Notes under the pieces: model-generated | What the model was told of the DNA's origin: nothing | Database searches by the model: none | What the model saw: only the letters and a program-made list of their open reading frames with translations | DNA from: Chitinophagales bacterium | Lineage (GTDB): Bacteria > Bacteroidota > Bacteroidia > Chitinophagales > JADJOU01 | Length of the DNA stretch: 64,000 nt | Direction: 5' to 3' | Assembly (NCBI GenBank): GCA_016787225.1 | Contig: JAEUUY010000005.1 | Location: forward strand, 62,001-126,000 | Made by a program: the position numbers and the translations under genes | In this document: positions 19,977 through 47,700 of the stretch, in pieces | How positions within the stretch are numbered: position 1 is the first letter of the stretch | Layout of the letters: every line of letters begins with the position of its first letter

Positions 19977-20663
19977 TTGTGGGTTAAACAAAAGGTAAAA
20001 TTTGAACGGTTGACTTTAAGAGCAAGCATTATAATAGTATGTATTTTAACATCCATAGCCTTATGGGGTCAAGATAGTTTTGGTATTAGTTATGGCCAAA
20101 CTTTTTCACTAGGACGATTGGCTGATAAATATCAGTTTGAAATTTCGCATCAAGGCAGAAAATTTATTTTAGAAGGCAACAACTTCAATTCGTTTCGATT
20201 TGACACGCCAGGAATATATACTATTCAGAGTAGAGAAATTATCAACTCAAAATATTTTGGTAAAAAAATATTGCAGGATGAACATGACAATCTGCCTAGC
20301 AATTTTGTTATTTATGTGGATTCTATTCAATTCGAATTTGATTCAGAGAGCATTGCAGCATCTGATATTCTTAGTAAAGGTAAAAATATAGGAGGGACAG
20401 AATTGTATATCGAAGTGGAAATTAAGAATTTCTATTCTACTCCAATTTCCTTTCCATCAAAGGTATTAAAGGTCAAGGCAGCAGGGATAGGTGCAGCAGT
20501 GGATGGGGTACTCGTAAAAACCATCCTATTGAATAAGCCTCATCGATTCCGATTCGTATATTCGCTCCAAGGTCAATTTAATGAGCGTGGATATATTCAG
20601 TTCGATTTTGAAAAATTTAATGGTCAACTATCTCCAATAGGCTGGCGTGAAGAAATTAAGTAA
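19977..20663 (+). CDS. Secreted hypothetical protein, partner of the giant repeat protein
   Basis: The frame is open for 228 codons but contains no ATG near its start. A TTG at 19977 or a TTG at 20010 must serve, the second placing a good signal peptide (TLRASIIIVCILTSIALWG, mature chain QDSF) right at the N-terminus. An ATG ten bases upstream (19967) is out of frame, so a small indel in the 5' end is another possibility. The mature protein is beta-rich (for example YVDSIQFEFDSES and TELYIEVEIKNF), and no family is recognised. Its end overlaps the GTG start of the 2436-residue protein by 17 bases, so the two are translated together. Confidence 0.65.
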   Translation: MWVKQKVKFERLTLRASIIIVCILTSIALWGQDSFGISYGQTFSLGRLADKYQFEISHQGRKFILEGNNFNSFRFDTPGIYTIQSREIINSKYFGKKILQDEHDNLPSNFVIYVDSIQFEFDSESIAASDILSKGKNIGGTELYIEVEIKNFYSTPISFPSKVLKVKAAGIGAAVDGVLVKTILLNKPHRFRFVYSLQGQFNERGYIQFDFEKFNGQLSPIGWREEIK

Positions 20664-23600
20664 TTTACTTAACTTTTGGAGATGGATTGTTTTATGCATC
20701 TTCTCCATTTCCTACTCTACAGCCAAGAGTCAATGTCGTATTGAGTGTAATACGAATGCAGGAATTTATTCGGACAACAATGCTCGTACCATTGCTTATG
20801 ACAATATGGGCTCGGGTTTTCATTCGACCTTTGTTTCAGAGAAAAATGGATTTAGAGTATGGGGTGAAAACATGCAGAATAATGGTACAGGTCATCACTT
20901 ATCACCTGTAACAATCAATAGTACTAACTACCCAGCCTTGACTGGAACTGTTTATTTCGTTGGAATTGGTTCTGAATGGGCGGGAAATGTTCAACTCATC
21001 GTTTTAACATCAACTGGTTTATTTGCAAGTGGAACACCTGGCGCAGTTCTTAGTACTGGAATAAAATCTACCAATACTTTTTCAAAATTGACTATAAATG
21101 GGAAAACTGATGGATTACCATCTGGAATTATACCTGATAGTGTAAAAATGATGTTTGTTTGTGCTGAAACTATCATCATTACTACCTGTGGAGGAAGAGT
21201 ATTTGTCCTAGCACAAAGCGCTCGTGTAAGAGGAGACCTCAGTGTAAGCAGCAGTTCAGCTAATACGTGGAGTCAAGTGATGCGAGCTGCTGGGCAACCT
21301 TTAACCAATATCATTGCGACACGAGGAACGGATAGAGCTGCCTTTGCGTTAGCTGCAGATTCCACTATTTGGACATGGGGAGATAATGTTTTACTAGGCA
21401 ATAGCACTGCAAGAGTCAACAGAGATTATGCTAGCCAAATGACTAAACCAAGCGGCCTGGGTGGCATTAAGATGATTCAAATGACAAATTTCAATTTCAA
21501 TTATACCTTTAACCAAACTTCATACTATGTTCTAGGGACGAATAATAGAATCTATTCATTAGGTGAAAATAACAATGGGCAATTAGGCGACAATACTACT
21601 ACAAATAGACTAGCCTGGGTCAATGTACTCAATCCCAATGGAACCACTGTAACAGATGCTACATGGATTACAGCCAATGAACACGACCCCAATTTGCCTA
21701 ACTTAGGCTTTATACGTTCGAATGCCCAAATGGTGACTTGTGGAAACAATTCGATAGCCATGATAGGTAGAGTCAATGGCACAGCGACTTTAATTGGAGC
21801 TACAAATCACCCAGATATTCCGAGTGGTATAAATTCGAATGACACTATTTTATTCTGTGAAATTGGCGGGCATACCTCATCTTACATAAAATATAATACT
21901 CTTCGATATGGTTATGTTGGACATAGAGTGAATGGTTCAGTAGGAGATAATAGCGCAGTGAACAGTACATTAACTAGTGTCAATTTTGTGATACCACCTA
22001 TTATCAATGTGTGTGGTACCCGCTGTGATACTCCCCAAATATATGGCAAACCATTTAACTGCAATGATAGTGTTATGTATTTTGTCATTAAAAGTAAATC
22101 GGGAAATAAGGTAAAATATGAAATCAATAATAATCCAGCAGATAGTGTGATTATTGGTATTTCCGACTCTGTAATTCTAACCTTAACGAATATAGGCGCT
22201 AGTCAAACCTTGAAGATTTTAAAAGTAGAAAATATTGCATGCAACCTTTCTGTTGCGGTTAATGACACCTTGAAATTTACTACCCGAAAAGATAGCTTTA
22301 GAACCATTTGTAGTAATCAATCGGTAGTATTTAATGGAAATATTCTCAATACTACAGGCGTCTATCGTGATACTTTTATAAACTCAAAAGGCTGTGATAG
22401 CTTCTTAGTGCTGCATTTAACCGTCAATGATACCACCAAAAAAGATTCCTTCCTCGCTATCTGTCGCTACAACCCGATTGTATTCAATGGACAAACTGTA
22501 AGTACTAGTGGGGTTTATCGAGATACGTTCATCAATGCCCGTGGTTGCGATAGTTTCCTCTATCTGCATTTAACTGTGAATGATACTTCGCGCAAAGATA
22601 GCTTCCGAACAATTTGCAAAAATCAACCGATTATTTTCAATGGAAATAGTTTGAATGTTTCTGGAATTTATCGAGATACGTTCGTAAATTCAAAAGGATG
22701 TGATAGCTTTTTAGTTTTGAACTTGACTGTGAATGATACGACCAAAAAAGATAGTTTTAGAACGATTTGTAAAAATCAATCGGTGGTGTTTAATGGACAA
22801 ACTTTGAATAATAGTGGCGTCTATCGTGATACTTTCGTGAACTCAAAAGGCTGTGATAGCTTCTTGTATCTCCATTTAACAGTCAATGATACTACCCGAA
22901 AAGATAGCTTTAGAACGATTTGCAAAAATCAGTCAGTGGTATTTAATGGACAAACCTTGAATACCACAGGAGTCTATCGTGATACTTTTGTGAACTCAAA
23001 AGGCTGCGATAGCTTTTTGGTTTTGAACTTGACAGTCAATGATACCACCAAAAAAGATTCCTTCCTCGCTATCTGTCGCTACAATCCGATTGTATTTAAT
23101 GGACAGACTTTAAGTACTAGTGGGGTTTATCGAGATACGTTCGTCAATGCCCGAGGTTGCGATAGTTTCCTCTATCTTCATTTAACTGTTAATGATACTT
23201 CGCGCAAAGATAGTTTCCGAACGATTTGTAAAAATCAACCGATTATTTTCAATGGAAATAGTTTGAATGTTTCTGGAATTTATCGAGATACGTTCGTAAA
23301 TTCAAAAGGCTGCGATAGCTTTTTGGTTTTGAACTTGACAGTCAATGACACGACCAAAAAAGATAGCTTTAGAACGATTTGCAAAAATCAGTCAGTGGTA
23401 TTTAATGGACAAACCTTGAATACCACAGGCGTCTATCGTGATACCTTCATGAACTCTAAAGGCTGCGATAGCTTCTTGTATCTGCATTTGACCGTCAACG
23501 ATACTACCCGAAAAGACAGCTTTAGAACCATTTGTAAAAATCAATCGGTAGTATTTAATGGAAATATTCTCAATACAACAGGCGTCTATCGTGATACTTT

Positions 23601-26600
23601 TGTTAATGCCAAAGGCTGCGATAGTTTCTTGGTGCTGCATTTAACCGTCAATGATACCACCAAAAAAGATTCCTTCCTCGCTATCTGTCGTTACAACCCG
23701 ATTGTATTTAATGGACAGACTTTGAGTACCAGTGGGGTTTATCGAGATACGTTCGTCAATGCCCGAGGGTGCGATAGTTTCCTCTATCTGTATTTAACTG
23801 TGAATGACACTTCGCGCAAAGATAGCTTCCGAACGATTTGTAAAAATCAACCGATTATTTTCAATGGAAATAGTTTGAATATTTCTGGAATGTATCGAGA
23901 CACCTTTGTCAATGCCAAAGGCTGCGATAGCTTCTTGGTTCTTAACTTGACAGTCAATGATACGACCAAAAAGGATAGCTTTAGAACTATTTGTAAAAAT
24001 CAATCGGTGGTATTTAATGGAAATATTCTCAATACAACGGGTGTTTATCGGGATACCTTCGTTAACTCAAAAGGCTGCGATAGCTTCTTGTATCTCCATT
24101 TAACAGTCAATGATACTACCCGTAAAGATAGTTTTAGAACCATTTGCAAAAATCAACCCATTACGTTTAATGGAAATATTCTCAATACTACAGGTATATA
24201 TAAAGATACTTTTGTTAATGCGAAAGGTTGCGATAGTTTCTTGTATCTGCATTTGACAGTCAATGACACCACTAAAAAAGATTCCTTCCTCGCTATCTGT
24301 CGCTACAACCCGATCGTATTCAATGGACAGACTTTGAGTATCAGTGGAGTTTATCGAGATACGTTCGTCAATGTCCGAGGGTGCGATAGTTTCCTCTATC
24401 TGCATTTGACCGTGAATGATACTTCGCGCAAAGATAGCTTCCGAACGATTTGCAAAAATCAACCGATTATTTTCAATGGAAATAGTTTGAATATTTCTGG
24501 AATTTATCGTGACACTTTCGTCAATTCAAAAGGTTGTGATAGCTTTTTGGTTCTGAACTTGACAGTCAATGACACGACCAAAAAAGATAGCTTTAGAACG
24601 ATTTGCAAAAATCAGTCAATGGTATTTAATGGACAAACGTTGAGTACCACAGGCGTCTATCGTGATACCTTCATGAACTCTAAGGGCTGCGATAGCTTCT
24701 TGTACTTGCATTTGACCGTCAACGATACTACCCGAAAGGATAGCTTTAGAACTATTTGTAAAAATCAGTCAGTGGTATTTAATGGACAAACCTTGAATAC
24801 CACAGGCGTCTATCGTGATACCTTCATGAACTCAAAAGGCTGCGATAGCTTTTTGGTTTTGAACTTGACAGTCAATGATACCACGAAAAAAGATTCCTTC
24901 CTCGCTATCTGTCGTTACAACCCAATCGTATTCAATGGACAGACTTTAAATACCAATGGTGTTTATCGAGATACGTTCGTCAATGCCCGAGGTTGCGATA
25001 GTTTCCTCTATCTGCATTTAACTGTGAATGATACTTCGCGCAAAGATAGCTTCCGAACAATTTGCAAAAATCAACCGATTATTTTCAATGGAAATAGTTT
25101 GAATATTTCTGGAGTGTATCGAGATACTTTTGTTAATGCTAAAAGCTGCGATAGCTTTTTGGTTTTGAACTTGACAGTCAATGATACGACCAAAAAAGAT
25201 AGTTTTAGAACTATTTGTAAAAATCAATCGGTGGTGTTTAATGGACAAACTTTGAATAATAGTGGCGTCTATCGTGATACTTTCGTTAACTCAAAAGGCT
25301 GTGATAGCTTCTTGTACTTGCATTTGACCGTCAACGATACTACTCGCAAAGATAGTTTCAAAACCATTTGTAGAAATCAATCGGTAGTATTTAATGGAAA
25401 TATTCTCAATACAACAGGTGTCTATCGAGATACTTTTGTGAACTCAAAAGGCTGCGATAGCTTTTTGGTTTTGAACTTGACAGTCAATGATACCACCAAA
25501 AAAGATTCCTTCCTCGCTATCTGTCGCTACAATCCGATTGTATTTAATGGACAGACTTTGAGTACTAGTGGGGTTTATCGAGATACGTTCGTCAATGCCC
25601 GAGGTTGCGATAGTTTCCTCTATCTGCATTTAACTGTGAATGACACTTCGCGCAAAGATAGCTTCCGAACAATTTGCAAAAATCAACCGATTATTTTCAA
25701 TGGAAATAGTTTGAATGTTTCTGGAATGTATCGTGACACTTTCGTAAATTCAAAAGGCTGCGATAGCTTTTTAGTTTTGAACTTGACCGTCAATGATACG
25801 ACCCGAAAAGATAGCTTTAGAACGATTTGTAAAAATCAAATGGTGACTTTCAATGGACAGAATCTCAACACTACAGGTATTTACAAAGATACATTTACAA
25901 ACTCTAAAGGTTGTGATAGCTTCTTTTATCTGCATTTGACCGTCAACGATACTACCCGAAAAGATAGTTTCAAAACCATTTGTAAAAATCAATCGGTGGT
26001 GTTTAATGGAAATATTCTCAATACTACAGGTATATATAAAGATACTTTTGTTAATGCGAAAGGCTGTGATAGTTTTTTGGTGCTGCATTTAACCGTCAAT
26101 GATACCACAAATTATTTCTTTACGAAAAGTATATGCCAAGGTGATAGTTTTTATTTCAATAGTAACTTCCGTTTAAATAGTGGAAATTTCAAGGATACAC
26201 TAATAAATATAGCTGGTTGTGATAGCTTTGTTTATCTTCAACTTACTGTAAATCCATTGCCCATAGCCAATGCAGGAAGAGATACTATAAGAATAAATTG
26301 TTCAGGAGATAGTGTTCAGCTCGGATCTGCCTCTATACCAAATCATAGCTATCGGTGGTTCCCCGACCTTAATTTAAGTAATGGTAGAATTGCTCAGCCC
26401 TATTCAAAGGTCGCAAACACAACGACTTATTATATGACTATTATGAATGACATAACTAATTGTGAAAATACAGATACTATCAAAATTACAGTTCGTGAAA
26501 GCCAAATGGTAGTCGAGTCTATAACATATAATCTCAAATGTAAAAACAGCCGAGACGGTATGATAAACTTACAAGCGAAAAAAGGGTTTGCTCCTTATCA

Positions 26601-27957
26601 ATATAAGCTTTCCCAAATGGTCTATCAAGATTCAGGCTTGTTCAAAAATTTACCTGCGGGCTTTAACCAATATACTGTGAGGGATATGAAGAGTTGTTTG
26701 TTTTCTGATACATTTAGCCTTGCAGAACCCACCGCTATCGAGACAGTAAGTAAAATTCGGAAACATTTGACTTGCTATCAAAGTAATGATGGTGAGATAG
26801 AAATAATAATTTCTGGAGGAACTCCTCCTTATAGTTATCTATGGACTCCGAGCGGAGATAAAGACAGTGTTCTTAAAAATCTATCTGCTACCACTTACAG
26901 TTTAGTTTTACTTGACTCAAACAAATGCTATTACACGGATACGGTAGTATTGAGCGAACCACCGCCCATTGTGATTCAAGATACTATTCAAAAAAGAAAT
27001 CCATGCTTTGGTGATTCCTTAGGAAGTATCGAAGTGAAATTAGCAGGTGGAACTCAACCCTATCGTTATTTATGGTCCAACGGTAAACGGGAACCTAAAA
27101 TTCAAAATTTGAAACAGGACACTTTTTATTTAAAGGTTACGGATACAAACAATTGTATAGAAAACTTTAAAATTCCTTTAATAAAAGATCCGATGCCTCT
27201 TTTATTTGATAGTTTAGGCAGTGAAATGCTCAATTGTCAAGATTTCACTAATATCAACCTGAGTGGTATAGGTGGAACCAAACCTTATGTCTATAGTATA
27301 GATTCTGGTATATCATTTAGATCACAAAAAATATTTAGAGTATCCGAGGCTAGATTGTATCATGTTCAAATAATGGATGCGAATAAATGTCTCACTAGAG
27401 ATACACATCGTGTAAAGGGAACAGAAAAAATAGAAATAGAAGTATATCCAAAAGATACCGTAGTGGGAATGGGAGAGCCTGTCGAGTTAGGTTATAGATA
27501 TATCAAAGGTGATTCAACCAAGGTGCAATCTTTTATTTGGAAACCTGGAGATGGTTTGAGTTGCACAGATTGTCGAAACCCTATTGCTACTCCTTATGTA
27601 CCAATGATATATACTATAGAAGTAATCTATAATGACAATTGTTATCACTCAGATAATGCTCGCATTCGACATACCCTAGATGAATTATTTATTCCAAATG
27701 CCTTTTCTCCAGATGGACCAAATATTGAAAATCAAACTTTACGAATTTACTCCAACAATATATACAAAGCTAAGTTGAGTATATTTAATCGGTGGGGAGA
27801 GAAAATCTTTGAATCACTTGAAGCACACAGAATTGGCTGGGATGGCACATATAAAGGTAAGAAATTAAACTATGATGTCTTTGTATATTCTGCTGAAATC
27901 ATTTATTTAAGTGGAAGAAAAGTGGTTAAATCTGGTGAGGTTACCTTAATTAGATAA
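20647..27957 (+). CDS. Giant T9SS-type surface protein: RCC1-like head, 26 repeat units, SprB repeats, CHU_C tail
   Basis: 2436 residues from a GTG start overlapping the preceding gene. Order: signal peptide (ends about STAKSQ); RCC1-like propeller region, about residues 40-450 (IWTWGDN, YSLGENNNGQLGDNTTT); linker; 25 almost identical 51-residue units (residues 548-1822) plus a divergent 26th; an Ig/PKD-like segment (IANAGRDTI); about four SprB-type repeats (SGGTPPYSYLW, AGGTQPYRYLW). The tail is a gliding-motility/CHU_C sorting domain (FIPNAFSPDGPN, IFNRWGEKIF, GWDGTYKGK, SGEVTLIR). Each repeat unit carries a Cys near its start (TICKNQ) and one in GCDSF, so disulfide-stapled modules are likely. 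It should be exported by T9SS and displayed on the surface, where an adhesin role is inferred. Confidence 0.9.
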   Translation: MKKLSNLLNFWRWIVLCIFSISYSTAKSQCRIECNTNAGIYSDNNARTIAYDNMGSGFHSTFVSEKNGFRVWGENMQNNGTGHHLSPVTINSTNYPALTGTVYFVGIGSEWAGNVQLIVLTSTGLFASGTPGAVLSTGIKSTNTFSKLTINGKTDGLPSGIIPDSVKMMFVCAETIIITTCGGRVFVLAQSARVRGDLSVSSSSANTWSQVMRAAGQPLTNIIATRGTDRAAFALAADSTIWTWGDNVLLGNSTARVNRDYASQMTKPSGLGGIKMIQMTNFNFNYTFNQTSYYVLGTNNRIYSLGENNNGQLGDNTTTNRLAWVNVLNPNGTTVTDATWITANEHDPNLPNLGFIRSNAQMVTCGNNSIAMIGRVNGTATLIGATNHPDIPSGINSNDTILFCEIGGHTSSYIKYNTLRYGYVGHRVNGSVGDNSAVNSTLTSVNFVIPPIINVCGTRCDTPQIYGKPFNCNDSVMYFVIKSKSGNKVKYEINNNPADSVIIGISDSVILTLTNIGASQTLKILKVENIACNLSVAVNDTLKFTTRKDSFRTICSNQSVVFNGNILNTTGVYRDTFINSKGCDSFLVLHLTVNDTTKKDSFLAICRYNPIVFNGQTVSTSGVYRDTFINARGCDSFLYLHLTVNDTSRKDSFRTICKNQPIIFNGNSLNVSGIYRDTFVNSKGCDSFLVLNLTVNDTTKKDSFRTICKNQSVVFNGQTLNNSGVYRDTFVNSKGCDSFLYLHLTVNDTTRKDSFRTICKNQSVVFNGQTLNTTGVYRDTFVNSKGCDSFLVLNLTVNDTTKKDSFLAICRYNPIVFNGQTLSTSGVYRDTFVNARGCDSFLYLHLTVNDTSRKDSFRTICKNQPIIFNGNSLNVSGIYRDTFVNSKGCDSFLVLNLTVNDTTKKDSFRTICKNQSVVFNGQTLNTTGVYRDTFMNSKGCDSFLYLHLTVNDTTRKDSFRTICKNQSVVFNGNILNTTGVYRDTFVNAKGCDSFLVLHLTVNDTTKKDSFLAICRYNPIVFNGQTLSTSGVYRDTFVNARGCDSFLYLYLTVNDTSRKDSFRTICKNQPIIFNGNSLNISGMYRDTFVNAKGCDSFLVLNLTVNDTTKKDSFRTICKNQSVVFNGNILNTTGVYRDTFVNSKGCDSFLYLHLTVNDTTRKDSFRTICKNQPITFNGNILNTTGIYKDTFVNAKGCDSFLYLHLTVNDTTKKDSFLAICRYNPIVFNGQTLSISGVYRDTFVNVRGCDSFLYLHLTVNDTSRKDSFRTICKNQPIIFNGNSLNISGIYRDTFVNSKGCDSFLVLNLTVNDTTKKDSFRTICKNQSMVFNGQTLSTTGVYRDTFMNSKGCDSFLYLHLTVNDTTRKDSFRTICKNQSVVFNGQTLNTTGVYRDTFMNSKGCDSFLVLNLTVNDTTKKDSFLAICRYNPIVFNGQTLNTNGVYRDTFVNARGCDSFLYLHLTVNDTSRKDSFRTICKNQPIIFNGNSLNISGVYRDTFVNAKSCDSFLVLNLTVNDTTKKDSFRTICKNQSVVFNGQTLNNSGVYRDTFVNSKGCDSFLYLHLTVNDTTRKDSFKTICRNQSVVFNGNILNTTGVYRDTFVNSKGCDSFLVLNLTVNDTTKKDSFLAICRYNPIVFNGQTLSTSGVYRDTFVNARGCDSFLYLHLTVNDTSRKDSFRTICKNQPIIFNGNSLNVSGMYRDTFVNSKGCDSFLVLNLTVNDTTRKDSFRTICKNQMVTFNGQNLNTTGIYKDTFTNSKGCDSFFYLHLTVNDTTRKDSFKTICKNQSVVFNGNILNTTGIYKDTFVNAKGCDSFLVLHLTVNDTTNYFFTKSICQGDSFYFNSNFRLNSGNFKDTLINIAGCDSFVYLQLTVNPLPIANAGRDTIRINCSGDSVQLGSASIPNHSYRWFPDLNLSNGRIAQPYSKVANTTTYYMTIMNDITNCENTDTIKITVRESQMVVESITYNLKCKNSRDGMINLQAKKGFAPYQYKLSQMVYQDSGLFKNLPAGFNQYTVRDMKSCLFSDTFSLAEPTAIETVSKIRKHLTCYQSNDGEIEIIISGGTPPYSYLWTPSGDKDSVLKNLSATTYSLVLLDSNKCYYTDTVVLSEPPPIVIQDTIQKRNPCFGDSLGSIEVKLAGGTQPYRYLWSNGKREPKIQNLKQDTFYLKVTDTNNCIENFKIPLIKDPMPLLFDSLGSEMLNCQDFTNINLSGIGGTKPYVYSIDSGISFRSQKIFRVSEARLYHVQIMDANKCLTRDTHRVKGTEKIEIEVYPKDTVVGMGEPVELGYRYIKGDSTKVQSFIWKPGDGLSCTDCRNPIATPYVPMIYTIEVIYNDNCYHSDNARIRHTLDELFIPNAFSPDGPNIENQTLRIYSNNIYKAKLSIFNRWGEKIFESLEAHRIGWDGTYKGKKLNYDVFVYSAEIIYLSGRKVVKSGEVTLIR
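22288..26112 (+). repeat. 25 tandem 153-bp coding repeats with a 612-bp higher-order period
   Basis: Twenty-five in-frame 51-codon units run without gaps. The variant unit beginning DSFLAICRYNP recurs exactly every fourth unit (units 2, 6, 10, 14, 18, 22; DNA positions near 22449, 23061, 23673, 24285, 24897, 25509). It is always followed by the PIIFNGNSLN variant. The array therefore grew by copying blocks of four units (612 bp). Confidence 0.95.
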
Positions 27958-32996: not shown

Positions 32997-33383
32997 ATGA
33001 TAGAAAAACTTATATACGAAAGTAAAAAATCCAAGATTTATTTTCAGAGTGAAAGTGAATGGGGAATCCCCGTTTTAGTGAAAATTTGTAATTATGAGTT
33101 TCCAACACCCAAAGAAATTGCTCAGTTTTATAACGAGTTTGATTTATTAGAAGGACTCCATCTCAAGCATACCAGAAATGTACTAAAAAAATCAAAAGAA
33201 AAGAACAGACACGCCATATATCTCGAATGGATAGAAGGCAATACTATCACTGAAATATTTAAAAATAAACAAGGCGATATTCTTGATTTTTTACATATAG
33301 CTATTGCATCCTCGAGTGCCTTAGCAGAAATACACCATAATGATATCATTCATAAAGATATAAGCCATTTAATTTATTGGTAA
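32997..33383 (+). CDS. N-terminal protein-kinase lobe fragment
   Basis: 128 residues covering the small lobe and start of the large lobe of a eukaryotic-type Ser/Thr kinase. VLVKICNYEFPTP carries the probable ATP-anchoring lysine in subdomain II, and AIYLEWIEGNTITEIF is the hinge. LAEIHHNDIIHKDIS is the catalytic-loop start with the usual HRD as HKD. The frame then ends HLIYW and a stop because of the frameshift. On its own it lacks the catalytic-loop Asn and DFG and would be inactive. Read it as the 5' part of 32997-38101. Confidence 0.7.
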   Translation: MIEKLIYESKKSKIYFQSESEWGIPVLVKICNYEFPTPKEIAQFYNEFDLLEGLHLKHTRNVLKKSKEKNRHAIYLEWIEGNTITEIFKNKQGDILDFLHIAIASSSALAEIHHNDIIHKDISHLIYW

Positions 33384-36300
33384 ATTTACAAGAGAGGACG
33401 GTTAAAATCATCGACTTTGGGATTTCATCACGAATAGATTTAAAACAGCACTCCATAAGTAATCCAGAGACATTAGAGGGCACTATCACTTATAACTCCC
33501 CTGAACAAACGGGTAGAATGAATCGTAAAGTAGATTATAGAACTGATCTCTATTCACTTGGGGTTACTTTCTATGAAATGTTATATGGACAGCCTCCATT
33601 TGTCTCTCAAGATGTCATGGAACTTGTTCATAGTCATATTGCGATAACCCCTAAGGAGCTAAATCAATTGAATCCAAGCATTCCTAAACCAATTTCAGAT
33701 ATCATCACTACACTTCTATCCAAGAATTCAGAAGATAGATATCAATCTGCAGAAGGATTAAAGCACGATTTGGAGATTTGCTTGCGTGAATATGAAAAAA
33801 CTAAACAAATACCTAATTTTGAGTTAAGACAAAATGATTATTCAGGCAAATTTGAAATTCCTCAAAAATTATATGGAAGGGAGAGTGAAATTAAATCTTT
33901 ATTAAACTCATTTCATAATTGTACACTTGGAACACAAGAAATAGTATGGGTCGCTGGATACTCAGGAACTGGGAAGTCTGCGCTCGTGAGAGAAGTTCAC
34001 AAGCCAATAACGCAAAAAAAAGGTTATTTTATCGAAGGTAAATATGATCAGTTTCAAAGAGCCATGCCCTATTATGCCATCCTTCATGCTCTAGGTGAAT
34101 TCATCAATATTATTCTAACAGAAAAGGAAGAGAAACTAGCACTATTTAAGGCGAAAATTCAAGATGCTGTAGGGAGCGAAGGGAAAGTCCTTACAGATGT
34201 TTTGCCACGGCTGGAGCTTATCATAGGAGAACAAGTATCTGTTCCAGAATTAGGAGGCGCAGAGGCGCAGAATAGATTTAACTATATCTGTAAAAAATTT
34301 GTTTCGGCAATTTCTTCAAAGGACCACCCTTTGGTTTTGTTTATTGATGATTTGCAATGGGCAGATTCTGCTTCTATAAATTTATTGGATGTATTGCTCT
34401 CAGACAAATCGAATGGGTACATTTTATTTATTGGAGCCTATCGGGATAACGAAGTGAATGCAAGCCACCCTTTTGTTCTACTCCAAAATGAATTGGGTGA
34501 GAAGGGTATAAATATGTCAAGCATTCATGTCGAGAATTTAAATCTAGAAAATTTAAATGATTTGATTTCGGAATCTGTAAATGAGTCCAAATCTATAACA
34601 CGACCACTTGCAGAGCTGGTTTTTTCAAAGACTCAGGGAAATGCATTTTTCTCAACACAATTTTTAAAAACTTTATTTTCAGAAAAACTATTACAATTCA
34701 ATTTTGCAAATAATAAGTGGCAATGGGATATTGAAAAAGTTAAACTACAAAACATTTCAGACAATGTAGTAGACCTCATGGCCAATAAGACTAAACAATT
34801 TACAGATGAAACCCAGGTATTGCTCAAAATAGCTGCTTGTATAGGGAATCAATTTTCATCCAGTGCCTTAGCGATTATCAGGAAAAAAGAAATCTCTGTA
34901 ATTCACCTAGATTTATTTGAGGCTTTGAAAGAAGGGTTTATAATACCTGCAGGTGAAAACTTTCGTTTCTCGCATGATAGAATTCAACAAGCCGTTTATT
35001 CAACAATTCCCGATAATGAAAAAAATAGTTTACATCTAAGTATCGGAAAACTTTTATTAGAGAATATCTCCGAAGAAGAAAAAGAAGAAAAACTATTTAG
35101 TATTACAAATCAATGGAATTGTGGAAAGGAATTAATCACATCCGAAGAGGAGAAGGAACAGTTAGCATTGTTAAATTTGGAAGCTGGAGTTAAAGCGAAA
35201 CAAAGTTCGGCTTTTAAGCCAGCACTGGATTATTTCGATACAGGAATTAGTTTGCTGAAACATGAACCATGGAAGAATCAGTATAAGCTCACGATTGACT
35301 TATATACCTATGCTATGGAAGCAGCCTATCTCAACGGAGACTTCAATGCCATGGATCAAAAGTATAAAGAAGTATTGGCTAATTCAAAAAATCTGTTAGA
35401 AAAGGTAAAACCATATGAAATTAGAATTCTAGCATATAAAGCAGAAAACAAATTAATTGATGCTATTAATACAGGAAGGGAGCTTCTGGCTCAATTAGGA
35501 GAGACATTCCCTACTAAAGCAAGGCTAGTTCATGTCATGTATAATTTATTGAAGATAAAATTAATGCTCTTTAGGAAGGATAATTATAAACTGGAAAATC
35601 TTCCTACAATGACCAATGAACATAAAATAGCTTCCATGCGCATTCTAGCCGACATAGCTTCTTCTAGCTATTGGGCAGTGCCTACATTTTTTCCATTGGT
35701 CATTTTTCGAATGGTGGAACTTTCATTAAGATATGGCAACACAGCAGTATCATCGTTTGCATTTGCTACCTATGGTGTTATCATGTGCGGTGTATTAGAA
35801 GATATGAAATCAGGCTATTCTTTCGGAAAGTTAGGCCTTGTTTTATTAGATAAATTCAAAGCTAAAGAATGGAAAACTCAGGTATTTACTCCTATTTATG
35901 CTTTGATCAATATATGGAATGAACATGTGCACAATACATTAAGACCACTGCAAGAATCCTATCATATTGGATTGGAAACAGGAGCCATCGAATTTGCTTG
36001 TATCAATACAAACATTTATTGTATCAATGCATATCTCAGTGGGAAACCATTGCCTAGACTTGAAATAGAAACCAAAGCTTACAGTGATAGTTTCAAGTCA
36101 TTTAAGCAGGAGACGAATTACAATTACAATGAGGTTTATCGCCAGGCAATGTTAAACTTTATGGGGAGATCTGCATCCCCTATAGTTTTGACAGGTGAAG
36201 CCTATGATGAGGAAAAGATGATGAATCAGAATACGGAAAGAAACGACAAAACCGGAACTTTCTTTATTCATTTCAACAAAATGATATTGTGTTATTATTT

Positions 36301-36595
36301 CGAAGATTATGAAAACGCTTTGCATCATTCCGCTCAGTCTAGATTGCTTTTGGAAGCAGTTTTAGCTAAGTTTGAAATACCAAATCATCATTTGTATGAA
36401 TCGCTCATTATGTTAGCCCTTTATCCAAAAGCTAATAGAACTAATCAGAAACGTTATATGAGTTCCATTAAGAGCAATATGAAGAAGATGAAAAAATGGG
36501 CAAAGGATGCTCCAATGAATTATCTTCACAAATACGACCTGTTGGATGCTGAGGTTCACAAGGCTCTGGGTGAAACGAATAAGGCTCGATTATAG
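33377..36595 (+). CDS. Kinase C-lobe plus AAA ATPase and helical repeat fragment
   Basis: 1072 residues. They begin in mid-kinase with VKIIDFGISSR (DFG), TITYNSPEQTGRMNR (activation segment) and YRTDLYSLGVTFYEML. An AAA_16/MalT-like ATPase follows: P-loop AGYSGTGKSALV with Lys at residue 200, and Walker B LVLFIDDLQWAD. Long helical, TPR-like sequence fills the rest. The apparent start Met is an artefact of the frameshift; codons upstream of it already encode kinase sequence. The frame ends at an in-frame TAG with the same protein continuing beyond. In the family the ATPase and helical region act as a regulatory platform between kinase and output domain. Confidence 0.75.
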   Translation: MVNLQERTVKIIDFGISSRIDLKQHSISNPETLEGTITYNSPEQTGRMNRKVDYRTDLYSLGVTFYEMLYGQPPFVSQDVMELVHSHIAITPKELNQLNPSIPKPISDIITTLLSKNSEDRYQSAEGLKHDLEICLREYEKTKQIPNFELRQNDYSGKFEIPQKLYGRESEIKSLLNSFHNCTLGTQEIVWVAGYSGTGKSALVREVHKPITQKKGYFIEGKYDQFQRAMPYYAILHALGEFINIILTEKEEKLALFKAKIQDAVGSEGKVLTDVLPRLELIIGEQVSVPELGGAEAQNRFNYICKKFVSAISSKDHPLVLFIDDLQWADSASINLLDVLLSDKSNGYILFIGAYRDNEVNASHPFVLLQNELGEKGINMSSIHVENLNLENLNDLISESVNESKSITRPLAELVFSKTQGNAFFSTQFLKTLFSEKLLQFNFANNKWQWDIEKVKLQNISDNVVDLMANKTKQFTDETQVLLKIAACIGNQFSSSALAIIRKKEISVIHLDLFEALKEGFIIPAGENFRFSHDRIQQAVYSTIPDNEKNSLHLSIGKLLLENISEEEKEEKLFSITNQWNCGKELITSEEEKEQLALLNLEAGVKAKQSSAFKPALDYFDTGISLLKHEPWKNQYKLTIDLYTYAMEAAYLNGDFNAMDQKYKEVLANSKNLLEKVKPYEIRILAYKAENKLIDAINTGRELLAQLGETFPTKARLVHVMYNLLKIKLMLFRKDNYKLENLPTMTNEHKIASMRILADIASSSYWAVPTFFPLVIFRMVELSLRYGNTAVSSFAFATYGVIMCGVLEDMKSGYSFGKLGLVLLDKFKAKEWKTQVFTPIYALINIWNEHVHNTLRPLQESYHIGLETGAIEFACINTNIYCINAYLSGKPLPRLEIETKAYSDSFKSFKQETNYNYNEVYRQAMLNFMGRSASPIVLTGEAYDEEKMMNQNTERNDKTGTFFIHFNKMILCYYFEDYENALHHSAQSRLLLEAVLAKFEIPNHHLYESLIMLALYPKANRTNQKRYMSSIKSNMKKMKKWAKDAPMNYLHKYDLLDAEVHKALGETNKARL

Positions 36596-36661
36596 TATGA
36601 CAAGGTCATATCTGGAGCAGCTAGTTCAAGCTATACTCACGAGGTAGCCCTTTCGTATGAA

Positions 36662-38101
36662 TTGGCAGGAAAACTCTATCTGAGCTTAAACTCAGAAGAT
36701 TTAGCAGAGTTTTATTTTAAAGCAGCATATAATGCATATCGAGAATGGGGAGCCGATGCTAAACTCAACCATTTAGAGCAATCATATCCAAAATATGTTT
36801 CTGGCGTGCAAAGACAAGAGTCTACTTTAAGTCAAAAGTCAGTGGTGAAGTCTACCACTTCTATGGTACAAAGTACAGTGCTAGATATCACATCAGTTCT
36901 CAAGGCAGCTACTGCTATCTCAGGGGAAATTATTCTTTCTAAACTATTGAATAATTTGATGAATGTCGTTATTGAAAATGCAGGCGCACATTATGGTTTT
37001 CTAATTTTAGATAGAGATGGTGAATTGATGATAGAAGCGATGATCAATAAGGAAAACCACGACACGAATATCTTAGATCATATTTCAATAAAAAACACAG
37101 AACTCCTATCAGAGGCTATCGTAAACTATGTCAAGCGAACAGGTGAAAGTATCGTCATCAATGATGCTGCGAATGACAATCGGTATCACAGTGATCCTTT
37201 TATATTAAAAAATAAGTCAAAATCAATTCTGGCACTTCCAATATTCAACCAAGGTAAATTTATTGGAATTCTTTATCTCGGTAACAATCTAAGTATTGGA
37301 GCATTTACCCAAGATCGTATAGATTTATTATCTCTTCTCTCAGGTCAAATAGCCGTCTCTATAGACAATGCTATCCTTTATGATCAAATGGAACAAAAAG
37401 TAAAAATTCGCACATCAGAACTAGCGGAAGAAAAAAGGAAATCAGATGATTTATTGTACAATATTTTACCTATAGAAACGGCAGAAGAGTTGAAACGAGA
37501 TGGAAGAACTAAGCCAAGAGGTTATGACAATGTAACGGTTCTATTCACAGACTTCAAAGGATTTACTATGATATCTGAAAAATTAACAGCCGAGGAGATT
37601 GTAAATGAGATAGATTTATGTTTTGGAACCTTTGATAAAATAATGGAAAAATATAATTTAGAAAAAATAAAAACAATAGGAGATGCTTATATGTGTGTCG
37701 GTGGACTGCCTGTTCCTAATTCTACGCATGCCTTAGATGCCGTGAAAGCGGCTATCGAGATAAAAGAATGGGTGCAGCAACATGGAGATTATTGCAGACA
37801 AAGAAATCTTCCTGTATTTGAGATTAGAATAGGACTCCATACTGGACCAGTAGTTGCAGGAGTTGTAGGTTCCAAAAAATTTGCTTATGATATTTGGGGC
37901 GATACAGTAAATATTGCAAGTAGGATGGAATCCAGCGGTGAACCGGGTCAAATCAATATTTCCGGAGCTACCTACAATCTGATTAAGAATTATTTTCAAT
38001 GCAAGCACAGAGGAAAGGTTCAAGCAAAGAACAAAGGAGAAATTGATATGTATTTTGTAGAAAGAGAATTAATGAATGGGGAAAGACAAAAAGCCAGCTA
38101 A
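36662..38101 (+). CDS. GAF domain and class III adenylate cyclase fragment
   Basis: 479 residues. A helical end piece is followed by a GAF domain, roughly residues 90-250 (SILALPIFNQGKFIGILYL), a short coiled segment and a class III nucleotide cyclase domain. Metal-binding Asp residues are D297 (LFTDFKGF) and D341 (TIGDAYM). Purine-selecting K337 and D410 (FAYDIWGDTVN) are of the adenylate type, and transition-state N417 and R421 are kept (NIASRM). All cyclase residues are intact, so this part could still make cAMP if translated. The nominal start is a TTG chosen only because of the upstream stop; the frame is continuous with the preceding sequence from 36596. Confidence 0.8.
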   Translation: MAGKLYLSLNSEDLAEFYFKAAYNAYREWGADAKLNHLEQSYPKYVSGVQRQESTLSQKSVVKSTTSMVQSTVLDITSVLKAATAISGEIILSKLLNNLMNVVIENAGAHYGFLILDRDGELMIEAMINKENHDTNILDHISIKNTELLSEAIVNYVKRTGESIVINDAANDNRYHSDPFILKNKSKSILALPIFNQGKFIGILYLGNNLSIGAFTQDRIDLLSLLSGQIAVSIDNAILYDQMEQKVKIRTSELAEEKRKSDDLLYNILPIETAEELKRDGRTKPRGYDNVTVLFTDFKGFTMISEKLTAEEIVNEIDLCFGTFDKIMEKYNLEKIKTIGDAYMCVGGLPVPNSTHALDAVKAAIEIKEWVQQHGDYCRQRNLPVFEIRIGLHTGPVVAGVVGSKKFAYDIWGDTVNIASRMESSGEPGQINISGATYNLIKNYFQCKHRGKVQAKNKGEIDMYFVERELMNGERQKAS

Positions 38102-38118
38102 ATCAAACACAAATTTTT

Positions 38119-40284
38119 ATGACTAAGGAAGAAATCAAAAAAATTGTCGAAGAATGTTATAATAAGACTAAAATTATATATACCGATAAAGGAAAATTTT
38201 TCGATCCGAAACTAAAAAGTATTAATCATTTAGAAGTTGGCAATTCAAAAATCATCAATAGTTGGCTTACTATACTAATTGAATTTTTTATTGCATTTTT
38301 AACAAGAATTTCAAAACGAATAAAGCAATGGTGGCATAGAATGACACCACGCAAGGATATCATCTATGGAACTGATTTTAATAGCACAGTAGTAGGAAGA
38401 ATCACATTCGGCAAAAGGAATGATTTGGCGATTCCTATTCATAATAAGCGAGTGGAATTATGGGTGAGGACTCGTTTGTTTCAATGGAGAAAATTAAGCG
38501 CTGGACGAACAGATCGAAATGGATATTTTGAACTACCATTTGATTTTATAGCGGCACGCAATTGGTGGAATCGCGCCAATCTGCGATTTGAAATATATGA
38601 AATGACGGGGCTAGTAACAATAGGTGGGAAACTACAACCAAATAAGAAACTCTTTAAGACTTTATTGATTCCCAAATCTGATTTGATAGGAATGAGCTAT
38701 AGCCTGGGAGTTATACAACTCTTTTTTTGGGAATATAGAGACGACACTAGAATACCTAGGGTATTCATAAAGAACCATGATGAAGACGCACCTGAGGAGT
38801 ATACCGAAGGTAGGACGGTGTCTATGAGTGAACAATTTATCCCTATAGAATTGACCAAACAAAAACATCTCTTGCAAATTCGGCGAGAGCCAGAATCTAT
38901 CAATTTGCAAACAATACAGGATGATTATCCAGAGAACTTGACCGTAGCCATCGAAAAAAGACTTCCTGGATATACTCGTGGAGATGACTGGTTCGGAGAA
39001 CGGTTTATGAATGGAATGAGTATGGCTACATTTATTCCTGACACAGAGAATCCAGCTCACTATTGGATCAAGTTTTTTGGAGCTGGATTATATGAAGTCA
39101 ATGAAGAATATGCATTTCCTACTGCTAAAATAAAATTTAAATTAAAAGAAGATGGATTGCCTACTCCTATTGAAATAAGACTCATAGGGCCTTTAAATGC
39201 TATAAACAAAGACCCATATGAGGAGCATGTCTATACACCTCAAGATGGTGAAAAATGGCTACAGGCAAAACGAGCAGCCAGAGTCACAAGCGCATTATGC
39301 GGTGAAATAGATCAGCATTTGGCTGGCACTCATCTCAATACGGAACAATATTCTATCGCAGTTCATAGGAATTTAAGACTCAATCCTATTGCTCGACTTT
39401 TATTGCCACATGTAAAAGAAGTAGCTTTGATAGATCATTCGGCAGATAAACTCTTAATAAAAGATTATCTACCAAACGCTACGGCATTGACGACTAACTC
39501 ACTTTTACAGCGCGCAGAAGATCTTTTAGGTTTTCAAGATTGGAAAAATTGGCAACCTATGAATCCAATATCAGAGGCACATACCTATGCAAAGGCTGAA
39601 ACACTTTTTTGGAATGTATTGAGAGAATGGGTGGATCTTTTTGTTGAAGAAAATGATGAAGAGATTAAAAAGTATTGGTACGAAATTTACTTATTTAGTA
39701 AGGATCTAGTTTCTCACTCCGTTCCTCTATATGGTTCAAACCTAGATTGGGAGACATTATCTGATCTGGACAAAAATTATCTCAAAGAACGAATCGAATA
39801 CCTCAGTCAAGAGTATCGAATAAATTTCAATAGTCCGCGAGAGAAAGTTGATAATATAACAAAAGTAATTTCCCCCGTAACGCTTTCTGAAGAGTATAAT
39901 CCCAATTCTAACGATTGGCAAAATTTGAAAGATATGTGTTGCTATGTAATAATGACGGCTACCTTCCTGCATACTTGGATCAATGAACATCAATATGAGG
40001 ATATAGGTGAAGTATTATATAGTTGTTTAGGACTGCGATTTGGAGAGAAAGAACAGGGTATTATGTCCCCAGAATCAGACTACAGTATAGCACCAGACCT
40101 CACAAGAAGTACACAGATGATGTGGTTTAGCAATTTTCTATCAAGAACGGAATATGGATTTATCGTGAAGAATGAAGATGGCGATATGGATCCTCGATTG
40201 ATAGAAATGTTTTTAGCTAAGAAAGAAGAATTTAAGAAATACAATGTAGCAATAGACCAAATTGAATCACGCACTAATATTTAA
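38119..40284 (+). CDS. Lipoxygenase-family non-heme iron dioxygenase
   Basis: 721 residues. The C-terminal catalytic domain shows the lipoxygenase pattern: GDDWFGERFMNGMS at its start, then QHLAGTHLNTEQYSIAVHR with iron ligands H400 and H405 (H-x4-H), then LNPIARLLLPHVKEVALID. FLHTWINEHQY carries H618 and N622 (H-x3-N), and the chain ends in isoleucine 721, the C-terminal ligand. All five iron ligands are therefore present with family-like spacing. The N-terminal region has a hydrophobic stretch (WLTILIEFFIAFLTRI, about residues 50-65), suggesting membrane association. Beyond it, a beta-rich domain (VELWVRTRLFQWRKL) could correspond to a transthyretin-like or PLAT-like module. It should insert O2 into polyunsaturated fatty acids; substrate and regiospecificity are unknown. 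The 3' end overlaps the catalase-like gene. Confidence 0.88.
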   Translation: MTKEEIKKIVEECYNKTKIIYTDKGKFFDPKLKSINHLEVGNSKIINSWLTILIEFFIAFLTRISKRIKQWWHRMTPRKDIIYGTDFNSTVVGRITFGKRNDLAIPIHNKRVELWVRTRLFQWRKLSAGRTDRNGYFELPFDFIAARNWWNRANLRFEIYEMTGLVTIGGKLQPNKKLFKTLLIPKSDLIGMSYSLGVIQLFFWEYRDDTRIPRVFIKNHDEDAPEEYTEGRTVSMSEQFIPIELTKQKHLLQIRREPESINLQTIQDDYPENLTVAIEKRLPGYTRGDDWFGERFMNGMSMATFIPDTENPAHYWIKFFGAGLYEVNEEYAFPTAKIKFKLKEDGLPTPIEIRLIGPLNAINKDPYEEHVYTPQDGEKWLQAKRAARVTSALCGEIDQHLAGTHLNTEQYSIAVHRNLRLNPIARLLLPHVKEVALIDHSADKLLIKDYLPNATALTTNSLLQRAEDLLGFQDWKNWQPMNPISEAHTYAKAETLFWNVLREWVDLFVEENDEEIKKYWYEIYLFSKDLVSHSVPLYGSNLDWETLSDLDKNYLKERIEYLSQEYRINFNSPREKVDNITKVISPVTLSEEYNPNSNDWQNLKDMCCYVIMTATFLHTWINEHQYEDIGEVLYSCLGLRFGEKEQGIMSPESDYSIAPDLTRSTQMMWFSNFLSRTEYGFIVKNEDGDMDPRLIEMFLAKKEEFKKYNVAIDQIESRTNI

Positions 40285-44070: not shown

Positions 44071-44793
44071 ATGAGAAAACTTTGCTATGTCATCTTTTAT
44101 TTACTAATAACAAATTATGGTTTTGCTCAGCAGTCCATTGTTGCCCAACCTAAATTATTGAAATATACCCAAGATTATAAAGTTGGATATAAGAATCAAA
44201 ACGGGGAAGTCGTGATACTGAATAAATATACAGCAGGTAGCGAGTTTGAGAATGGCTATGCAATTATTCTCATAGGTTCTAAACGGGGTTATTTAGACCA
44301 ATATGGCAATGAGAGCATTCCTCCTCAATATCAAGATGCTTCACCATTTTACTATGGACTGGCCTGTGTTAAGAAAGATGGTTATTATGGTTATATCAAT
44401 CCACAAAACCAATGGGTCATCAAAAATACCTTCCAAAATGCATTTAGCTTCTATGAAGGAGTAGCACGTGTACAGGTCAATGATAAGTGGGGATTGATTA
44501 ATCTGAGAGGAGAATTTATCCTGCCTCCAGACTACCTAGATATCAAAGACTGCGCTTTTGGCTTGATTCTTGCTAAAAAAGATAAACTTTACGGTTACCT
44601 TAGACCAGACGGACGTTGGAAAATTTCTCCTCAGTATGAGCAAGCTATGTCTTTTATCTATGATGGCACCGCAGAGGTGATAATGAATGGTAAAACCTAC
44701 CTTATCAATCAGCAAAATGAAATCATAAGAGAGGTCAATCATGAAGAAGAACATGAAGAAACGGAGAGAAAATATAAAGCAGGATTAAAATGA
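44071..44793 (+). CDS. Secreted WG-repeat protein
   Basis: 240 residues with a signal peptide (ends NYGFAQ). Consecutive WG (KWG-type) beta repeats follow: KRGYLDQYGNESIPPQYQDA, then YYGYINPQNQWVIKNTFQNA, KWGLINLRGEFILPPDYLDI and LYGYLRPDGRWKISPQYEQA. WG repeats are beta hairpins thought to bind protein or ligand; the partner is unknown. The stop overlaps the start of the next gene by four bases (ATGA), so it is made together with the 1494-residue T9SS-type protein. Confidence 0.85.
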   Translation: MRKLCYVIFYLLITNYGFAQQSIVAQPKLLKYTQDYKVGYKNQNGEVVILNKYTAGSEFENGYAIILIGSKRGYLDQYGNESIPPQYQDASPFYYGLACVKKDGYYGYINPQNQWVIKNTFQNAFSFYEGVARVQVNDKWGLINLRGEFILPPDYLDIKDCAFGLILAKKDKLYGYLRPDGRWKISPQYEQAMSFIYDGTAEVIMNGKTYLINQQNEIIREVNHEEEHEETERKYKAGLK

Positions 44794-47700
44794 AATGGCT
44801 ACAAGTCCTTATTCTCAGTGCATTTTTTAATAGCCTCAGCTATGGACAAAATGGTGGTGTGTGGACTTGGATTCATGGTGATACAATTCTAGGAGTGAAA
44901 AACTATGGGGTTAAAGGAGTGCCATCTCCAAGTAACTTACCCCCTGGTAGATATCATCCTGCATTTTGGCAAGATAAAAATGGTAAGTTCTGGATCTTTA
45001 GTGGTTCGCCAGCCCCTTCTGATATGTGGATGTATGACCCTTTAACGAATGTATGGACATGGATGAGTGGCGATTCTACCCAAACAAATGGTGTTTACGG
45101 TACTAAAGGAGTACCATCCACTAGCAACTATCCAAAATGGAGAGGGTGGGGTGCAAGCTGCTGGACAGATAGTATAGGTGATTTGTGGATGTTTGGTGGT
45201 TCAGGCTGTAATGACTTATGGCGATATCATATTCCTACCAATGAATGGACATGGATGAGCGGAGACAATCCAAATACAGGGCTTACTACTGGTAGAAATT
45301 ATGGAACTAAAGGTGTATCATCTACCTCAAATTTTCCTGGTACACGAGCAGAATGTAAGTCAAACTGGGTATATCATAATGAGCTTATTTTTTTTGGAGG
45401 TAGTAGTTTCAATGATGTGTGGTCATATTCTATATCAGGGAATGTATGGACGTGGATTGGTGGCAATAATGCTAGTTCTACTCCTAATTATGGTACTATG
45501 GGGGTCTCAAGTCCTTCTAACAATCCACCTGGAGCAAATCATACCTATACACGTTGGAAATCTGGAAGTAAATTGTTTGTTTTTTCTTTTGGTTCTAAAA
45601 ATGATGTTTGGAGTTTTGATATGAACAATAAACAGTTTACATGGGAATTGGGACAAAACCCATCTTCCAATACTGGTATTCCACCACCAGCAAATTGCGT
45701 TGTAGGAGGATATTTCCCTAAAGCCAGGGGTGAAAATCATACAGTTCAAACTACAGATTGCAATAGAGCTTTCTGGACATACGGTGGAGGTGATTGTGAT
45801 TTATGGCTATATAGGCTAACTACTAATGATTGGATGAGGGTTAGTAAAAATTCTAATTCAAATTGTCGACCAATATACGGCTCGAAAGGTATTACGAATC
45901 CTTTAAATCATCCTGGAAATAAATATGGTTTCCCGATGTGGACAGACGACAATAATAATTTATATATTTTTAGTGGTCATATAGGGTCTAATGATTTATG
46001 GAGGTTTGAGCCCGATATTGCTTGTATAGGAACAGTGCTCAATGCTAGATCAATTTATAAACCTAACAAAACCTCAATTTGCACTTCTAATGATTCTGTA
46101 GTATTAACTCTAGACACCATTCTATATAATGTTACCTGGAATCCCACAAGCAATGTGACAGTTAATGCAGACACTTCACGTTTAGTGTTTAAATCTAGTA
46201 TTAAGACTGACTATATGGTCACTGCCTTCGGCGGCAAGTGTACAGCCATTGATACTTTGCGATTTACTGTGAATATGGGTAGTCATACCTTTGATACCTT
46301 AATAGATACAACCTGCCTTATCGGCAAATACCCATTTAGTCAAAGTGGAATTTATGACTATGTTATTCGGAACGCTAGCGGTTGTGATAGCAATATCCGT
46401 CTTCAGCTTACTATGAGAAATAATATTGATACCACCAAGGCGGAGATATGCAAAGGAAGTACTTATTTATTTCAAGGTAGCAATTATTCTACAACGGGGA
46501 TATATCAAAAAAACTATAAAAATCAGTATAACTGCGATAGCACCAAAGTGCTTGTATTGAAGGTAAATAATCCGGATACAGTCTATGTCAAACAAACTAT
46601 ATGCATGGGTGATACGTTTACCTATCGTGGAAATAAATACACTGCTTCTGGAAACTACAATTTTGCAAGTGGTTGTGGAATGGATGTATTGTCTTTATGG
46701 GTAAGACCTAAAGATTCATTTGTGATCTTCGATACCTTCTGTACTGGAGATACGTTTAAATATCAAGCGCATCGCTATAATAGCGCAGGAACATACTCGC
46801 ACAAATATACCAACTCTGATGGCTGTGATAGCTTTATGGTATTTAATCTACATGTAAAAACCAAGACCAGTGATACCATACGCATAGACTCCATTATATT
46901 CGAAAATCTCTGTTCTATTAATAATAAACGTATTTATATTTTCCCATTAAATACAGATTTCAAAAATAAATATTCTCGTGATTTCGGATATAATTATCAG
47001 CCAGCTAGTATTTTCTATAATCTGATTGCTGGTACTTATCCTATTCGTATTAAGCGAGGTTGTGCCTTCCTTGACACTCCTGTTACACTGCCTTATAGGG
47101 AAAGAGACACCTCTGTCATCAATGATGAAACTTGTGAACTTTTTCCATATTATTTTAATGGAAAATACATCACGAAAACAGGAGTCTATTGGGATACTTT
47201 TACCAATGTTTATCAATGTGATAGTTTTATTAAGTTAAATTTAATTGTTCACAAGACGGATTCATCAACTATTCGTGATACGATATGTAGAGGAGATACG
47301 GTAATATTTGATGGAATACCAAGAGCAGTGGCTGGGGTATATTACCAGCGTATCAAACTCTTCGAAGGCTGCGATAGCACAGTTAAATTTATACTCTCTG
47401 TCAAGCGCCGTGATACCATGATTCATAATCGAAGCATCTGCCAGGGCGATACCTTAAATTTTGCTGGCAACAGATATACTGAAGCTGGTAGCTACAAATT
47501 AAGCTATATAAATAAACATGGCTGCGATAGCTTTGTTCACCTAAATCTTACAATCAAGCGTCGTGATACTTTTTCTTTTAATGACACCATTTGCCGAGGT
47601 AGTAGTAAATTGTTTGAAGGAATTGCCCATAAGATTAGCGGAAATTTTGTATATAAACTGACGAATCGTGAAGGATGTGATAGCTTTAGAATATTAAATT

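What the first reader, a model, noticed from the sequence alone, without database searches (positions are those of the whole stretch)
22288..26112. Homogenised array with a four-unit higher-order period inside a surface-protein gene
Twenty-five 51-residue units are nearly identical in protein and DNA. A DSFLAICRYNP unit occurs exactly every 4th position (2, 6, 10, 14, 18, 22), so the 612-bp block, not the single unit, has been the unit of copying. Such arrays change length easily by recombination and may vary adhesin reach between cells.
Basis: seen in the sequence. Interest (0 to 1): 0.65.

Follow-up and report, generated by a model that had tools for sequence, protein, structure and literature searches.

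The report
Four-phase bead array in surface protein
A bacterial surface-protein gene carries 25 copies of a small bead-like domain arranged in a repeating cycle of four slightly different versions, a clear bacterial example of block-wise copying inside a gene, though not a freshly copied or proven length-changing one.

Summary
The array is real: 25 gap-free 153-bp units fill 22288-26112 inside a 2,436-aa gene (20647-27957, +). The four-unit period is strong: in-phase units are 87.8% identical in DNA and out-of-phase units 71.2%, reached by 0 of 10,000 shuffles. It also holds at synonymous sites. "Nearly identical in DNA" is wrong: out-of-phase units are near codon saturation, and no two 612-bp blocks exceed 91.5% identity. 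Whole-block copying alone does not fit: in-phase synonymous divergence differs fourfold between phases (0.23 to 0.92), and phases 1 and 4 share exact tracts of up to 74 bp. I infer old block amplification followed by exchange between sufficiently similar units. The protein is most likely a T9SS-exported surface stalk: RCC1-like propeller, Ig-like beads, SprB repeats, type B sorting domain. The bead has no Pfam model above cut-off but occurs in 313 of 396 genomes of the order. Of 48 such arrays tested, three have strong super-periods, of 2, 3 and 4 units. Copy-number variation could not be tested: orthologous arrays in three relatives run off contig ends. Block-wise domain copying is already described, so this is a new member of a known kind.

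The parts
20647..27957 (+). gene for the 2,436-aa surface protein that holds the array (GTG start, signal-peptide-like N-terminus by eye)
   Evidence: open frame; the signal peptide is a judgement by eye, no predictor was run
20857..21894 (+). RCC1-like propeller region (residues 71-416)
   Evidence: PF25390 and PF00415 below their cut-offs; fold match of the N-terminal model (pLDDT 70.4) to RCC1-like propellers, best E 2.8e-14
22288..26112 (+). array of 25 units of 51 aa / 153 bp with a four-unit (612-bp) higher-order period
22441..22593 (+). first phase-2 unit (DSFLAICRYNP); the others start at 23053, 23665, 24277, 24889 and 25501
26113..26265 (+). 26th, divergent edge unit; its counterpart is recognisable in G001, G002 and G003
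   Evidence: found by the unit profile; counterparts printed
26767..26853 (+). best of three SprB repeat matches (residues 2041-2069)
   Evidence: PF13573, E 3.5e-30 for the whole protein, over its cut-off
27688..27951 (+). C-terminal T9SS type B sorting domain (residues 2348-2435)
   Evidence: PF13585 and TIGR04131, both over their cut-offs

Best explanation
The gene encodes a T9SS-exported surface stalk: an RCC1-like propeller carried on about 25 small Ig-like beads, with SprB repeats and a sorting domain at the C-terminus. The beads have a higher-order period because a four-unit block, perhaps itself grown from a two-unit one, was amplified by recombination within the gene. Afterwards units exchanged short tracts mainly with units similar enough to recombine, that is the same phase or the close pair of phases 1 and 4, while purifying selection kept the fold. 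Shown: the period, its presence at synonymous sites, the age of the blocks, the shared cross-phase tracts and the domain make-up. Inferred: the recombination mechanism, the two-unit ancestor, export, the stalk role, the disulphide in each bead and the propeller as the binding tip.
For: Lag-4 peak in DNA and at synonymous codons, 0 of 10,000 shuffles each. 33 of 41 exact repeats of 40 bp or more at multiples of four units. Fourfold unequal in-phase dS between phases, 0.23-0.92. Cross-phase exact tracts of 71-74 bp where phase consensuses share at most 26. Block dN/dS median 0.09. Extra two-unit period in residues 35-51. SprB, CHU_C and TIGR04131 over cut-off; SprA_N and GldM_1st in the genome. 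Confident all-beta bead, pLDDT 92.4.
Against: No near-identical block pair exists, so ongoing block copying is not seen. The four phase-distance matrices are uncorrelated, which also weakens a simple history of whole-block duplications. The two-unit period in the ortholog G001 rests on six units and is not significant. The propeller model is only moderately confident. No direct evidence of export, adhesion or length change.
Confidence: 0.72

Rival explanations
1. Four consecutive beads form one functional or geometric module (for example a binding face or helical turn every fourth bead, marked by the phase-2 unit), and selection rather than copying keeps the period at four.
For: Phase-2 residues at positions 5, 6, 9, 10 and 11 are the same in 6 of 6 phase-2 units. 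In the window's family 8 of 12 arrays peak at lag 4, against 10 of 36 outside it.
Against: The period is equally clear at synonymous sites, which selection on protein does not explain. Phase 2 has low dS as well as low dN, 0.231 and 0.017, so no special constraint is seen. None of the six complete N-side units of the G001 ortholog has DSFLAICRYNP. Other arrays have clear periods of 2 and 3.
Confidence: 0.12
2. Neighbouring beads are kept unlike by selection, so that identical neighbours do not misfold by swapping strands; the four-phase order is a side effect. (The idea is recalled from work on titin-like proteins, not from a call.)
For: Three of four junction types join units of only 67-77% mean protein identity.
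Against: The fourth junction, phase 4 to 1, joins units of 80-90% identity, mean 0.86, in all six blocks, so likeness is not avoided. Arrays with near-uniform units also exist, for example L200 with 47 units and 0.88 at lag 1.
Confidence: 0.07
3. Assembly artefact: the array length or order was produced by collapsed or wrongly joined repeats.
For: Orthologous arrays in three relatives lie at contig ends, so such arrays are hard to assemble.
Against: The longest exact repeat in the array is 131 bp, every block is distinct and the frame is open throughout. Reads were not available.
Confidence: 0.07

Closest known systems
Block-wise expansion of protein domain repeats (e.g. nebulin by seven domains; Bjorklund et al. 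2006, PMC1553488)
   Same: Similarity peaks at a multi-domain lag, read as duplication of several domains at a time (abstract and section 8 read)
   Different: Bacterial, intron-less, DNA-level evidence at synonymous sites, and visible tract exchange between phases
Higher-order repeats of centromeric alpha satellite (recalled)
   Same: Monomers of several types in fixed order, like with like across blocks
   Different: Here it is a protein-coding bacterial gene under purifying selection (block dN/dS 0.09)
SprB-type T9SS surface adhesins of Bacteroidota
   Same: Large, repetitive, SprB repeats and a type B sorting domain
   Different: RCC1-like N-terminus and a 25-bead array; no link to gliding was tested
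Grappling hook protein GhpA of Aureispira sp. CCB-QB1
   Same: Closest solved structures of the bead model: the eight best rows are GhpA fragments, Z 5.2-6.4; a review passage calls such hooks T9SS-secreted (PMC11205867)
   Different: No sequence match in the PDB search; Z is below a secure shared fold; rmsd 7-8 A over 200-204 residues

Membership tests
Higher-order tandem repeat (block-wise copied) | In-phase units more alike than neighbours, at DNA and synonymous level | tested here: met
   0.878 against 0.712 and 0.764 against 0.538; 0 of 10,000 shuffles each
Higher-order tandem repeat (block-wise copied) | Copy number changes by whole blocks between strains | not testable with these tools
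   One genome per species is held; relatives' arrays lie at contig ends
Recently homogenised array | Near-identical copies | tested here: not met
   Block identity 85.6-91.5%, dS 0.40-0.67, longest exact repeat 131 bp
T9SS type B cargo | C-terminal sorting domain over curated cut-off | tested here: met
   TIGR04131 37.6 bits against 35; PF13585 39.5 against 27
T9SS type B cargo | Secretion machinery in the genome | tested here: met
   SprA_N E 7.2e-138, GldM_1st E 1.7e-41; other components not searched
RCC1-like propeller | RCC1-type repeats and propeller fold | tested here: inconclusive
   Pfam matches below cut-off; fold match E 2.8e-14 from a pLDDT 70.4 model
Pfam Ig-like families (Ig_7 and others) for the bead | Match over the curated cut-off | tested here: not met
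   Window block: no family over cut-off; Ig_7 matches 7 of 36 alignment members, best E 0.0022
GhpA-like grappling hook | Shared bead fold | tested here: inconclusive
   Top rows but Z 5.2-6.4; no sequence match
GhpA-like grappling hook | Heptameric hook | not testable with these tools
   Assembly state not predictable here

The most novel reading that the evidence does not exclude
Sequence divergence itself sorts the beads into recombination classes: phases too unlike to recombine (phase 2 against the rest) are homogenised only among themselves, while the close phases 1 and 4 leak into each other. The gene thus keeps a self-maintaining four-phase order, as in centromeric satellites but inside a bacterial protein gene, and the recurring period of four in this family reflects that dynamic.
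Probability: 0.25. Interest if true: 0.6.

Novelty: new member of a known kind. Interest (0 to 1): 0.38.

Why it matters
It is a compact bacterial case in which block copying, exchange between units and purifying selection can all be read from one gene. It also points to a very common bead domain of this bacterial order that has no Pfam model above cut-off. If exchange is limited by unit similarity, such arrays would show how a fixed order arises in repeated proteins without selection for that order.

Tried and rejected
Fresh homogenisation: rejected, as block dS is 0.40-0.67. Period 4 as a fixed property of the bead fold: rejected, since clear arrays have periods 2 (L171) and 3 (L191). One ancestral four-unit block for all family arrays: unsupported. 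The rotation test against the window gave 8 of 2,000 shuffles for L092 and for L106, 24 for L096, 35 for one L102 array, and 201 or more for the other six of ten arrays. Copy-number comparison among orthologs: not possible, because N- and C-terminal parts lie on separate contigs in G001, G002 and G003; the two contigs share an exact 103 bp in G003, 75 bp in G002 and only 20 bp in G001. Pfam hits inside the array (Mre11_C, SoxD and others) are judged chance: on the 204-aa block they fall below cut-off, though Mre11_C passed its cut-off on the whole protein by summing weak pieces, with no stretch significant on its own.

Literature: a search for higher-order repeats in bacterial adhesins listed two unrelated papers, one for 'super-repeat' found none, one search found none, and the ten listed included no bacterial surface protein. 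These searches cover open-licence PMC papers only, so they do not show that such arrays are unpublished.

Survey limits: arrays came from best matches to a profile built partly from this family, and I chose regions by hand from the listed rows, not from all rows. Of the 103 sources scanned, 69 arrays had six or more units; 48 distinct ones with eight or more were tested. Arrays of eight units can only show lags 2-4. L092 and L096 look like orthologs and are not independent.

Full report
Observation. The 2,436-aa open frame 20647-27957 holds 25 units of 153 bp with no indel from 22288 to 26112. Tandem Repeats Finder sees the array with periods 153 and 306, its longest period being 500. DSFLAICRYNP occurs at units 2, 6, 10, 14, 18 and 22. 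Mean DNA identity is 0.706, 0.728, 0.713 and 0.875 at lags 1 to 4, and the peak recurs at lags 8, 12, 16, 20 and 24. In-phase pairs average 0.878 in DNA and 0.918 in protein, out-of-phase pairs 0.712 and 0.754; 0 of 10,000 shuffles of unit order reach the DNA difference. Among codons for the same amino acid the identical fraction is 0.764 in phase and 0.538 out of phase, again 0 of 10,000; random pairing of the array's codons would give 0.49. So the period is a property of the DNA, as copying predicts.

Units are not nearly identical in DNA. The six complete blocks are 85.6-91.5% identical, with dS 0.40-0.67 and median dN/dS 0.09. Out-of-phase pairs were saturated or undefined for dS in 108 of 234 cases. 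For scale, the N-terminal domain against the closest relative, G001, is 82% identical in protein, with same-codon fraction 0.493 and dS about 2.6. Phases are therefore about as far apart as these two species, and block copies are closer. That fits amplification after the split, or continued in-phase exchange; the two were not separated.

More than block copying. If only whole blocks had been copied, the four phases should be about equally old. Median in-phase dS is 0.77, 0.23, 0.36 and 0.92 for phases 1-4, and block distances do not correlate between phases. Units 8 and 17 (phases 4 and 1) share 74 exact bases and units 5 and 8 share 71, where the two phase consensuses share at most 26; phase 1 and 3 units share up to 47, against 27. 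Identical 30-bp windows occur between phases 1-4 (2.2%) and 1-3 (1.7%) and in none of the other four phase pairs. Variants absent from all four consensuses are shared 1.24 times per phase 1-4 pair, against 0.14-0.40 for the other cross-phase pairs. Phase 2, the least like the others (consensus 64-69%), has the lowest in-phase divergence. I read this as tract exchange that depends on similarity. Residues 35-51 carry an extra two-unit period (DNA 0.815 at lag 2 against 0.701 at lag 1), so a two-unit ancestor is plausible but not shown.

The protein. SprB repeats and the CHU_C/TIGR04131 domain pass their cut-offs, and SprA_N and GldM_1st are in the genome. AlphaFold2 models four beads as all-beta with mean pLDDT 92.4 but pTM 0.55, so the bead is confident and the angle between beads is not. 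Two cysteines per unit are invariant or nearly so in a 36-row alignment; a disulphide is inferred. The closest solved structures are fragments of GhpA, the Aureispira grappling hook, without a sequence match in the PDB search and below the Z at which a shared fold is secure. A review passage says such hooks are T9SS-secreted and heptameric (PMC11205867, passages). The N-terminal domain models as an RCC1-like propeller at moderate confidence (pLDDT 70.4; best PDB match E 2.8e-14). At a guessed 3-4 nm per bead the array would span some 75-100 nm; this is inference.

Relatives. The bead profile matches 313 of 396 genomes of the order; no Pfam family passes its cut-off on the window's block. The N-terminal part has its best matches in G001 (82% identity), G003 (68%) and G002 (67%), and the C-terminal part at 60, 54 and 54% in G001, G003 and G002. 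In all three the N-side contig ends and the C-side contig begins inside the array, so their lengths are unknown. Shared contig lengths tie G001-G003 to MAGs JAJTHM, CANESS and JAURJQ.

Survey. Of 48 distinct arrays with eight or more units, three have a super-period reached by 0 of 2,000 shuffles after correction for the lags tried: window (4), L171 (2) and L191 (3). Twelve of 48 reach 100 or fewer of 2,000, where chance alone would give two or three. In the window's family 8 of 12 arrays peak at lag 4 and outside it 10 of 36, but arrays of eight units can only show lags 2-4, L092 and L096 look like orthologs, and two arrays lie in the same locus (L102).

Verdict. A real and well-resolved higher-order repeat in a T9SS-type surface protein. 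Block-wise expansion of domain repeats is in print (PMC1553488: abstract and section 8 read, passages elsewhere).

Noticed in passing
44790-49274 (+): A second large open frame (1,494 aa) in the window carries divergent copies of the same bead (matches at 35-39% identity).
   Followed up: no
19977-20663 (+): A 228-aa open frame without Pfam match overlaps the start of the array gene by 17 bases; whether it is a gene is unknown.
   Followed up: no
33377-40284 (+): Three neighbouring frames: a kinase-plus-AAA ATPase protein, a GAF-guanylate/adenylate cyclase and a weak lipoxygenase match, an unusual signalling-and-lipid set.
   Followed up: no
L191 (G237:C43:36000-55000): An open frame of 7,770 aa holds a 21-unit bead array with a strict three-unit period, 0.848 in phase against 0.648.
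   Followed up: partly
L171 (G152:C6:19000-31000): A 25-unit bead array with a strict two-unit period, 0.648 against 0.484.
   Followed up: partly
L200 (G304:C1:2146000-2165000): An open frame of 7,404 aa with 47 bead units of near-uniform sequence, 0.88 at lag 1, and at least one identical pair.
   Followed up: no
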